In this document: piece after piece, positions 11,772 to 12,897 of the stretch
How the letters are laid out: each line of letters opens with the position of its first letter
Numbering within the stretch: position 1 is the first letter of the stretch
Origin: an uncultured Eubacteriales bacterium
Lineage (GTDB): Bacteria; Bacillota_A; Clostridia; Oscillospirales; Oscillospiraceae
Assembly (NCBI GenBank): GCA_949451265.1
Contig: CASTQR010000016.1
Span: 1 to 16,385, forward strand
Reading direction: 5' to 3'
DNA length: 16,385 nucleotides
The notes under the pieces: model-generated
Databases searched by the model: none
What the model was told of the DNA's origin: nothing
The model's input: the letters and a program-made list of their open reading frames with translations, nothing else
Made by a program: the position numbers and the translations under genes

Positions 11772-11814
11772 CGGTCAAGAAAGCGGTCAAGGAAACCGTT
11801 CAGATTTCGTCAAG
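11772..11814 (-). promoter_or_regulatory. Tandem direct repeats upstream of the ABC operon, possible response-regulator site
   Basis: On the plus strand related units recur about one helical turn apart: CGGTCAAG (11772), CGGTCAAG (11784), CGTTCAG (11797) and CGTCAAG (11808). Regularly spaced direct repeats are the usual target form of OmpR-family regulators, and one is encoded upstream. On the minus strand these units read as TTGACC/TTGACG, so they also resemble -35 boxes, but no convincing -10 box is seen at the right distance. The last unit overlaps the stop codon of the TfoX-like gene. Confidence 0.4.
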
Positions 11815-12082
11815 ATTTCGGAGGCGTTCCCTTGAGGCGGTCGCTGAACCCCTTCAGCTCCTGCTTTTTCTCCTCGGAAAGGCGGTTATAGTCCGTGTCC
11901 GTAACGGCCCCCTCCAGGACATACAGGTGCACCAGGCAGATCTCCGGGAACACCACTTTCATCCGGAAAAATGCCTCCTTAGAGCCCGTCTCCCGCAGCT
12001 TGTCCGGCGTGTCGATGCCCACGGCGGTGAGCTTCCGGGCCATCTCCCTGCCGATATTCCGCATGGACTGTAAGTCTGCCAT
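11810..12082 (-). CDS. TfoX C-terminal-domain protein
   Basis: A 90-residue protein made only of the TfoX/Sxy C-terminal domain (PF04994): SMRNIGREMARKLTAVGIDT, PDKLRETGSKEAFFRMK and LYVLEGAVTDTDYNRL match the family pattern, in which helix-hairpin-helix-like helices are found. The N-terminal TfoX domain is absent. In gamma-proteobacteria TfoX/Sxy promotes competence gene expression; small Firmicute versions have no known function. The ATG at 12082 has AAGGAGGAG at good distance. It lies 92 bases after the response regulator stop and 142 bases before the ABC ATPase start, all on the same strand. Whether it takes part in the transport system or is a passenger is not known. Confidence 0.85.
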   Translation of the reverse strand: MADLQSMRNIGREMARKLTAVGIDTPDKLRETGSKEAFFRMKVVFPEICLVHLYVLEGAVTDTDYNRLSEEKKQELKGFSDRLKGTPPKS

Positions 12083-12107
12083 GCCGTTCTCCTCCTTATT
12101 CTGTCCG

Positions 12108-12266
12108 CATTTTGAAGCCGATGCCCCTCGTCGCCGCGGGCTCCATATCCCTCACGGCGGCGTTCCGCCGCCGCTCACTCACTTGCCGCTCCTCCTCTCC
12201 GAAACGAACCCGCTTCGCTGGGCTTCGTTTCGGGATGGCCTTCGGCCATTTTAAATCCAATGCCCC
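12108..12266 (-). repeat. Palindrome-rich insert with duplicated GIGFKM codons at the response regulator 3' end
   Basis: Two related 20-base copies, CATTTTGAAGCCGATGCCCC (12108-12127) and CATTTTAAATCCAATGCCCC (12247-12266), flank about 119 bases. Read on the minus strand each encodes GIGFKM, and the three differences are all synonymous. Between them are three hairpins: 12155-12170 (6-bp arms), 12199-12233 (10-bp arms, CCGAAACGAA with TTCGTTTCGG) and 12235-12249 (ATGGCC-TTC-GGCCAT). The right copy closes the response regulator domain; the left copy is followed by CGG ACA GAA TAA, which looks like the original gene end. This resembles a small mobile or interspersed repeat, but copy number elsewhere cannot be seen here. 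Confidence 0.5.
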
Positions 12267-12897
12267 ACACTGATTCAATGCAATCTCCCGCCCCGGCGTC
12301 CCGCAGCTTTTTCCGCAGGTTGCTGATGTGGGTTTTCAGGGAGCTCTCGGTGCAGTCCGGGGTGTCCCGGGCGATCTCGTCCAGCAGCCGGGACTTGGTG
12401 ACCACCTGGGAGGGGGCGGCCATCAGCAGGTGCAGGATGGCGTACTCCGTCCGGGTGAGCCGCACCTCCCTGCCGTCCACGGACACCCAGCGGGCGTCCG
12501 GCTCCAGCCGCAGGGGGCCGAAGGTGAGGGCCGCCCCCGGCCTGGCGCCTGCCTCCCGCAGCCGCACGGCCACACGGGCCAGCAGCTCCCGCAGGACGAA
12601 GGGCTTTGTCACGTAGTCCGCCGCGCCCCCCAGCAGAAGGGCGGTCTTACTGTCCACGTCCGCCCTGGCGCTGACCACGATGACGGGGATGCCCGCCAGC
12701 CTGGGCAGAATCTCCTCCCCGGACAGGCCGGGGAGCATGAGATCCAGCAGGGCCAGATCGGGCCGCTCCCGCTCCAGGGCCAGCACCGCCTCGGTGCCGG
12801 AATAGGCCCGGCCCACCCGGTAACTCTCCCCCTCCAGGGCCTCCTGGAGGAGGTTTCCAATGTGGATATCGTCGTCGATGACCAGGATGTGCTTCAT
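12175..12897 (-). CDS. OmpR-family response regulator with an added C-terminal tail
   Basis: Phosphorylation-controlled transcription factor, probably partner of the histidine kinase at the far end of the cluster and regulator of the ABC transporter. Receiver domain at 1-110: acidic pocket Asp8/Asp9, phospho-acceptor Asp52 (LLDLMLPG), Ser76 and Lys98 (YVTKPF). Winged-helix DNA-binding domain at about 125-217, with LTRTEYAILHLLM, SSLKTHISNLRKKL and ESVWGIGFKM. Normal OmpR proteins end just after this motif; here 23 further residues (AEGHPETKPSEAGSFRRGGAASE) follow, encoded by the palindrome-rich insert. The last about 14 conserved codons are AT-rich, unlike the rest of the gene. ATG at 12897 is chosen because MKHILVIDDD is the natural N-terminus; the ribosome site is only moderate. 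Confidence 0.92.
   Translation of the reverse strand: MKHILVIDDDIHIGNLLQEALEGESYRVGRAYSGTEAVLALERERPDLALLDLMLPGLSGEEILPRLAGIPVIVVSARADVDSKTALLLGGAADYVTKPFVLRELLARVAVRLREAGARPGAALTFGPLRLEPDARWVSVDGREVRLTRTEYAILHLLMAAPSQVVTKSRLLDEIARDTPDCTESSLKTHISNLRKKLRDAGAGDCIESVWGIGFKMAEGHPETKPSEAGSFRRGGAASE

What the first reader, a model, noticed from the sequence alone, without database searches (positions are those of the whole stretch)
12094..12300. Response regulator 3' end carries a palindrome-rich insert that duplicates and recodes the last conserved codons
The conserved OmpR C-terminal motif GIGFKM occurs twice, 139 bases apart. The distal copy uses GC-rich codons like the rest of the genome and runs into CGG ACA GAA TAA plus a ribosome site, as the original gene end would. 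The copy in the real reading frame uses AT-rich codons (ATT GGA TTT AAA), and the codons just before it (GAT TGC ATT GAA TCA) are AT-rich too. All three differences are synonymous. Between the copies lie three strong hairpins that also encode a 23-residue foreign tail. This fits an element that inserts into response regulator genes and carries a replacement for the target's last codons, similar to how phages and integrative elements restore the 3' end of their target gene. If so, it would be a tiny, coding-sequence-restoring mobile repeat.
Basis: partly seen in the sequence, partly recalled or inferred. Interest (0 to 1): 0.72.

Follow-up and report, generated by a model that had tools for sequence, protein, structure and literature searches.

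The report
Tiny mobile element carrying gene tails
A roughly 107-base repeat with a conserved RNA fold, present in many copies in Oscillospiraceae genomes, inserts near the ends of genes and in at least some cases arrives with its own slightly rewritten copy of the gene's last codons, so the gene keeps working.

Summary
The insert (window 12246-12128, minus strand) belongs to a dispersed family: a ~107-nt scaffold with strong base-pair covariation, at no Rfam threshold, matched in 37 of 41 genomes of a relative's genus and 109 of 150 of its family. In 22 of 150 copies the end of the preceding gene is present twice: complete and in frame before the element, and again starting at the element's 3' end. 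In 30 hand-framed pairs, 113 of 144 differing codons are synonymous. In gpmI the downstream copy equals the tail of the nearest element-free relative, while the in-frame tail and the element resemble those of a more distant species: the unit [tail + element] seems to have moved horizontally into the gene. Of 36 repeat-bearing copies, 7 by script and 13 by eye also carry 10-15 nt antisense to the insertion junction just before the scaffold, like a guide. No enzyme was identified. The closest precedent, mitochondrial homing ORFs carrying replacement C-termini, encodes a nuclease; this does not. In the window the tail has no stop before the element, which adds 23 residues.

The parts
12178..12897 (-). 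host gene: OmpR-type response regulator, 240 codons including the 23-residue element-encoded tail
   Evidence: Response_reg and Trans_reg_C; the second domain ends at residue 217
12247..12285 (-). AT-rich tract of 13 codons GAT...ATG, the presumed carried (replacement) gene end
   Evidence: in the element-bearing orthologue of G024 9 of 12 comparable synonymous codons of the last 14 are identical (element-free orthologues: up to 7 of 12)
12247..12266 (-). upstream repeat copy (GGGGCATTGGATTTAAAATG), in frame
12235..12246 (-). pre-scaffold segment GCCGAAGGCCAT; position where some other copies carry an antisense guide; no convincing guide here
12128..12234 (-). conserved scaffold, ends GACGA; model R1 match 12127-12234, 101.7 bits, the only strong match in the window
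   Evidence: the window copy is itself in the model
12199..12234 (-). scaffold hairpin 1
12128..12195 (-). scaffold domain 2 (outer stem, internal loop, apical hairpin)
12175..12246 (-). element-encoded C-terminal extension AEGHPETKPSEAGSFRRGGAASE plus TGA stop
   Evidence: full tail in 9 of 120 listed homologues, one of them identical to the window protein; with partial forms 16 of 120
12096..12127 (-). native gene end displaced downstream: GGGGCATCGGCTTCAAAATGCGGACAGAATAA, starts directly at the scaffold 3' end
   Evidence: encodes GIGFKMRTE-stop as in element-free homologues
11810..12082 (-). next gene, TfoX_C-domain protein, just downstream of the native gene end

Best explanation
The insert is one copy of an undescribed family of small, ORF-less mobile elements of Oscillospiraceae and relatives. 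The mobile unit is: a copy of the target gene's last codons (usually with stop), a short spacer that in some copies is antisense to the insertion junction, and a ~107-nt structured scaffold ending GACGA. It homes into the same place of an orthologous gene: the entry point lies inside the gene's last codons, often at T|G. The incoming tail replaces the gene end, with a few codons of upstream co-conversion, and the native end is left behind the element. Shown: the family, the fold, the exact 3' junction, the doubled gene ends, the mostly synonymous differences and, in gpmI and ilvC, that tail and gene body have different histories. Inferred: that the antisense spacer acts as a guide, that the scaffold RNA recruits an enzyme acting in trans, and that break repair (or target-primed copying followed by recombination) does the insertion. 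In the window a unit entered the response regulator gene; its tail lacks a stop before the scaffold, so translation runs 23 codons into the element.
For: Multicopy: 37 of 41 and 109 of 150 genomes. Fold: 28 of 31 pairs with changes on both sides, covariation 0.607 against 0.216 shuffled, 0 of 500. Doubled ends anchored at the element 3' end: 22 of 150 copies at score 12 or more, 1.7 expected from mismatched pairs. Codon differences in 25 pairs: 99 synonymous, 23 not; with five more pairs 113 and 31; one pair per gene (14 genes) 59 and 14; 22% synonymous expected for random single changes. gpmI: G001 against element-free G028, body 426 of 465 synonymous codons identical, tail 2 of 9 (p = 1.6e-6); the downstream copy differs from G028's tail at 0 of 30 bases, the in-frame copy at 7; the in-frame tail differs from element-bearing G032 at 2 of 30, and the G032 gpmI element is the nearest relative found (0.84, next 0.75) although its gene body is more distant (334 of 416). 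ilvC: G039 against element-free G005, body 283 of 310, tail 3 of 15 (p = 5.9e-10). Clean empty site: eno of G031 continues into the same 3' flank that follows the downstream copy in G025. Antisense of the junction: 12 nt or more in 5 of 36 repeat-bearing copies, about 0.2 expected; sense matches of 8 or more in 0 of 36; the same eno spacer stands in G001, G038, G025 and G008.
Against: No enzyme found: RRXRR, RVT_1, Y1_Tnp and TnpB-type genes do not track the element. In ilvC the three copies at one junction (G039, G001, G004) share parts of the rewritten tail but their scaffolds are unrelated (0.55-0.68), so tail and scaffold need not travel together. Element-free alleles can carry similar tails: gpmI G018 is as close to the G001 in-frame tail as G032 is (2 of 30), ilvC G033 differs from the G039 tail at 2 of 33. 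128 of 150 copies show no doubled end at the score used. The window has no clear guide, and by script 29 of 36 repeat-bearing copies lack an antisense match of 10 nt. For the window G024 shares tail and element, so vertical descent is not excluded.
Confidence: 0.67

Rival explanations
1. Ordinary transposition of a MITE-like repeat with long, variable target-site duplications (about 18 to 94 bp); the two gene ends were identical at insertion and then drifted.
For: Several repeats are identical or nearly so: eno L205 44 of 44, ECH L132 51 of 53 bases, ilvC G029 18 of 18 coding bases. A duplication that spans the stop codon would preserve the gene without any carried tail.
Against: The downstream copy is outside the gene and should change at all codon positions, yet 113 of 144 differing codons are synonymous. 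In gpmI the downstream copy is unchanged relative to G028 while the in-frame copy has 7 of 30 changes. Known duplications of insertion sequences are much shorter (recalled).
Confidence: 0.2
2. An intron-like RNA element: the antisense spacer is an internal guide sequence pairing across both splice sites, and tail plus scaffold can be spliced out, so both gene ends encode the same protein and both stay under coding selection.
For: Where found by script, the spacer pairs with 4-8 nt on one side and 3-7 nt on the other side of the junction, like P1 and P10 of group I introns (recalled). It would explain mostly synonymous differences between two constrained copies.
Against: Copies inside genes read as tadA, a methyltransferase, a VirB4-like ATPase and a small membrane protein keep the frame through the element, which splicing would not need; but that test lists only open copies, and frame-broken copies inside genes were not sought. 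In aspS of G036 the downstream copy is frameshifted. No intron family among Rfam matches up to E = 5 in 15 loci. The spacer base opposite the T of the junction is A, not the G of a group I wobble.
Confidence: 0.08
3. A protein-level element like Rickettsia palindromic elements: a palindromic repeat kept because it adds a tolerated peptide to genes.
For: The scaffold can be open in frame: 37 of 169 copies are open for 50 codons either side in some frame, chance frames included. The response regulator tail recurs, fully or partly, in 16 of 120 listed homologues.
Against: Many gene-end copies lie after the stop codon; does not explain the doubled ends or the antisense spacer.
Confidence: 0.04

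Closest known systems
Mitochondrial mobile ORFs (mORFs) of fungi: Allomyces atp6 and Glomus atp6, atp9, cox2, nad3 (PMC3630166, passages seen)
   Same: An inserted foreign C-terminus that differs from the native one largely at synonymous sites, native end left downstream and like that of the nearest relative, inferred horizontal transfer.
   Different: Those elements encode a LAGLIDADG or GIY-YIG endonuclease; here there is no ORF, only a ~107-nt structured scaffold, in many genes per genome, in bacteria.
Rickettsia palindromic elements and other MITEs (PMC10969869, passages seen)
   Same: Dispersed palindromic repeats of about 100-150 bp, some in frame in genes.
   Different: Here the flanking repeats are gene ends of variable length, some copies have an antisense spacer, and the fold is two-domain with covariation.
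OMEGA RNAs of IscB (HEARO) and TnpB (search listing with abstract starts only; details recalled)
   Same: Structured RNA scaffold next to a guide-like segment and tied to a mobile element.
   Different: No IscB- or TnpB-type gene tracks it; the guide-like segment is 10-15 nt and centred on the insertion point; no HEARO match.
Group I introns (recalled)
   Same: A short sequence complementary to both sides of the insertion point.
   Different: No intron match in Rfam (15 loci).

Membership tests
fungal mitochondrial mORF homing elements | carried C-terminus diverged at synonymous sites, native end like nearest relative | tested here: met
   (gpmI G001, ilvC G039)
fungal mitochondrial mORF homing elements | endonuclease ORF inside the insert | tested here: not met
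   inserts examined are the scaffold plus a short spacer; a search for gene ends repeated further upstream found no ORF-bearing version among copies with enough flank
Rickettsia palindromic elements | in-frame insertion in coding sequence | tested here: inconclusive
   some copies in frame, many after the stop codon
MITE of a DNA transposon | terminal inverted repeats and short fixed target duplication | tested here: not met
   scaffold ends differ in the alignment; flanking repeats about 18 to 94 nt
OMEGA RNA (IscB) | RRXRR protein in the genome | tested here: not met
   over the cut-off in 1 of 42 genomes, G016, which has no element match
OMEGA RNA (TnpB) | TnpB-type protein in the genome, scaffold at the tnpB 3' end | tested here: not met
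   over the cut-off in 14 of 42 genomes; of 18 fetched loci 5 have an R1 match (two of these weak or partial) near the gene, 13 have none
OMEGA RNA | guide adjacent to scaffold matching the target | tested here: inconclusive
   antisense spacer of 10 nt or more in 7 of 36 repeat-bearing copies by script, 13 by eye
group I intron | conserved catalytic core | tested here: not met
   no intron among Rfam matches up to E = 5 in 15 loci
group I intron | splicing | not testable with these tools
   needs RNA data
REP elements mobilised by RAYT (Y1) transposase | Y1 transposase in the genome | tested here: not met
   16 of 42 genomes; none in element-rich G001, G018, G024, G041

The most novel reading that the evidence does not exclude
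A natural cleave-and-rescue element: a tiny RNA with a target-specific guide directs an enzyme in trans to cut the end of a (often housekeeping) gene, and the element supplies a rewritten end that keeps the gene working, so it spreads through orthologous genes across species without encoding any protein. Against the simplest form: in several spacer-bearing copies the in-frame end still matches the spacer.
Probability: 0.35. Interest if true: 0.95.

Novelty: categorically new. Interest (0 to 1): 0.85.

Why it matters
It would be a bacterial mobile element that targets housekeeping genes and pays for the damage by bringing a spare gene end, with no protein of its own. It makes direct questions testable: which enzyme uses the scaffold, whether the spacer is a guide, and how such units acquire new target genes. 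It also means that some C-terminal tails and unusual gene ends in Oscillospiraceae proteins are element-derived, which matters for annotation and for trees built on gene ends.

Tried and rejected
Own-genome search was not possible because no genome is held, so copies were sought in genomes of relatives. Response-regulator specificity was dropped once copies were found in other genes. Simple long target-site duplication was my working view; it lost ground when ortholog comparisons showed tails with a different history. IscB, reverse transcriptase, Y1 and TnpB as partners: presence does not follow the element. A link to TnpB looked promising because copies follow tnpB-like genes in G034, but of 18 fetched loci 13 have no R1 match, so it looks like another target. 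Longer versions with an ORF between tail and scaffold: none seen among copies with enough flank. Phages: no match; plasmids: 1 record, not opened; viral contigs: 1 contig with one exact pattern, not studied. Literature listings showed me no description; they cover open-licence papers only. A catalogue of 3,161 candidate structured RNAs of human microbiomes (PMC8040213, passages seen) has supplementary tables I could not see, so an unlabelled listing there is possible.

Rows left out of the synonymous count: of the 25 repeats shown, L168, L163, L144, L142 and L152 (element-in-element, non-coding or weak) and L180 (same locus as L099). Six pairs were added by hand: L089, RR of G024, ilvC of G001, G004 and G029, aspS of G041. 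Not were pgk G130, L403, L396, eno G025 and the decayed aspS G036, which speaks against the pattern; one search adds them (the last only up to its frameshift) and lowers the share from 81% to 78%. Still out: aspS G039, eno of G001 and G038 from the ortholog loci, eno G036, L384's second copy, L385, L404. All pairs were framed by hand. In one search the longest antisense matches include ordinary hairpins (L090, L104, L201, L214, L176), not guides. In one search I judge the junction misplaced by the script, or the spacer outside its search window, in L108, L205, L364, L099, L180 and aspS G039; these six are the difference between 7 by script and 13 by eye (L099 and L180 are one locus). The controls include orthologous genes.

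On recheck I lowered confidence in the best explanation from 0.70 to 0.67 and raised the intron rival from 0.06 to 0.08, because element-free gpmI of G018 is as close to the in-frame tail as G032, and because the in-frame test lists only open copies.

Full report
What is there. The response regulator gene (minus strand, 12897-12178) ends GIGFKM plus 23 residues. A second GIGFKM followed by RTE-stop begins at 12127, 139 bases on, and runs into the ribosome site of the next gene. Differences between the copies are synonymous. The in-frame gene end is AT-rich (9 of 14 codons with A/T at position 3, body 15 of 203). Element-free orthologues vary too: AT3 of the last 14 codons is 0.50 in G039 and 0.36 in G005, so this sign alone is not decisive. 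Of the 120 homologues listed (best of 7,999 scored), 52 end exactly GIGFKMRTE and 16 have the element-like tail, one of them the window's own protein.

It is a dispersed family. The 121-base insert matched all five genomes reached through the first five loci, 3 to 15 matches each. A covariance model from 28 copies, the window's included, finds 37 of 41 genomes of the genus, up to 52 matches in one genome with 94 candidates scored per genome, and 109 of 150 genomes of the family with 25 candidates scored each. G014, G016, G017 and G027 had none. No Rfam family reaches its threshold on the element; the best is STnc380, 23.9 bits against a cut-off of 60, E = 0.034, not seen again in 15 other loci (the tmRNA match there is a neighbouring gene).

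It has an RNA fold. Of 31 pairs, 28 show changes on both sides in at least one sequence; 93.4% of cells pair against 72.6% in shuffles; the covariation score is 0.607 against 0.216 (0 of 500 shuffles reach it), and sliding the partners lowers it to 0.09-0.14. A U-G pair kept in 22 of 28 copies would be a C-A mismatch on the other strand, so the strand running towards GACGA is taken as the RNA. The structure was derived from the same alignment, so some bias remains.

Doubled gene ends. Among 150 copies, a repeat starting at the element's 3' end and also present in the 180 bases upstream is found in 22 at score 12 or more; mismatched pairs give 1.7. The genes are unrelated: aspS, eno, gpmI, pgk, ilvC, rpoD, comM, an enoyl-CoA hydratase and others, named by me from their sequences, not by a search. 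The downstream copy starts directly after GACGA; the upstream copy is, in the gene-end cases, the in-frame end with stop; the gap to the scaffold varies. In a set of 175 copies enriched by hand for such loci, 36 have the repeat and 14 of 36 junctions, as placed by the script, read T|G.

The ends differ mostly at synonymous sites. In 25 hand-framed pairs (301 codons) 99 codons differ synonymously and 23 do not, with 22% synonymous expected for random single changes, p = 2.5e-43. Adding five pairs left out before, one of them decayed, gives 113 and 31 in 372 codons; one pair per gene (14 genes) gives 59 and 14. A downstream copy drifting freely outside a gene would not give this. Decay is seen in places: in aspS of G036 the downstream copy is frameshifted.

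Tail and gene have different histories. gpmI of G001 is closest to G028 and G038, both without element there. Its body shares 426 of 465 synonymous codons with G028 but its tail only 2 of 9. The copy behind the element is identical to G028's tail (0 of 30), while the in-frame tail differs from G028 at 7 of 30 and from G032 at 2 of 30. G032 carries an element after gpmI that is the nearest relative of the G001 one among those compared (0.84, next 0.75), although its gene body is more distant (334 of 416). Against this, element-free G018 is equally close to the in-frame tail (2 of 30). In ilvC, G039 against element-free G005 has body 283 of 310 and tail 3 of 15, and its tail is closest to that of element-bearing G001 (11 of 15). 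The rewritten tract begins some seven codons upstream of the junction, as co-conversion would. Also against a simple reading: the three ilvC scaffolds at that junction are unrelated (0.55-0.68), and element-free G033 differs from the G039 tail at only 2 of 33, so tails and scaffolds can part.

The antisense spacer. Just before the scaffold, some copies carry the reverse complement of the junction: aspS GCGCCCATCAT in G003 and G036, longer in G039 and shorter in G004 and G041; eno GTCGCCCAGCTCC in G001, G038, G025, G008; pgk CCGGGCAGCTCC in G130 and G174; a ribonuclease-H-like gene (15 nt); a flagellin-like gene (13 nt); an enoyl-CoA hydratase (12 nt); rpoD (10 nt) (gene names mine). By script, antisense matches of 10 nt or more to the junction occur in 7 of 36 (controls 0.4 and 0.75) and of 12 or more in 5 of 36 (0.23 and 0.25); sense matches of 8 or more in none. 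By eye I count 13 of 36. The window lacks one. In aspS G004 and the hydratase the in-frame end still pairs with the spacer, so protection by rewriting is not general.

Copies inside genes. In genes I read as tadA (two genomes), a methyltransferase (three copies in two genomes), a VirB4-like gene and a small membrane-protein gene the element is open through in frame. It is tolerated as protein there. The test lists only open copies, so it does not show that frame-broken ones are missing.

Partner. RRXRR proteins exceed the cut-off in 1 of 42 genomes, one without the element. Reverse transcriptases are in 25 of 42 and not found in element-rich G005, G022, G025, G032 and G037; Y1 transposases in 16 of 42; TnpB-type proteins over the cut-off in 14 of 42. 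No partner is claimed.

What it is like. Fungal mitochondrial mORFs bring a foreign C-terminus, largely synonymous but diverged, and leave behind a native end that matches the nearest relative (PMC3630166, passages). This works like that, in bacteria, without the nuclease gene. Rickettsia palindromic elements share size and in-frame tolerance (PMC10969869, passages). Each known family considered fails on at least one tested feature or could not be settled, so I rate the kind as new, with the reservation that subscription papers and supplements were not searched.

Back to the window. The response regulator site is filled in G001, G002, G024 and, in a deleted form, G041; the window, G001 and G002 elements are each other's nearest relatives. 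In G024 the element is shortened and followed by a native-like end without its stop. The window insertion thus looks like an older member of the family in which the new end has no stop before the scaffold, giving the 23-residue tail.

Noticed in passing
L420:1459-2664 (minus) and loci L421-L437: A TnpB-like gene of about 400 residues (Pfam) upstream of a gene that looks like csrA, with a conserved RNA-like region after its stop; it resembles exapted TnpB regulators of flagellar loci (recalled). In G034 (two loci) and G002 the element sits right after its stop; weak or partial R1 matches in G029 and G019.
   Followed up: partly
L168:806-1108: Three tandem in-frame copies of the element in a small membrane-protein gene.
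   Followed up: no
L100:1501-1609, L124:1175-1283, L163:468-686: Copies immediately 5' of the tmRNA gene (Rfam match in L100; same start sequence in the others), two copies in a row in L163.
   Followed up: no
L104:307-670, L399:2001-2110, L400:2001-2110, L135:98-605: Copies directly before what look like tRNA or 5S rRNA genes; in L135 two copies, each followed by the same antisense tRNA-like gene (read by eye).
   Followed up: no
L387-L393: In G085 the element lies at a constant place inside a longer multicopy repeat, some copies at contig ends, suggesting recent spread.
   Followed up: no
L369 and L374, after the eno stop codon: In G042 and G036 a stretch resembling the eno antisense spacer is followed by a different hairpin, perhaps a second element family using the same site.
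   Followed up: no
L001:6773-6900, L002:6774-6900: In these relatives the native response regulator end and the TfoX_C gene do not follow the element.
   Followed up: no
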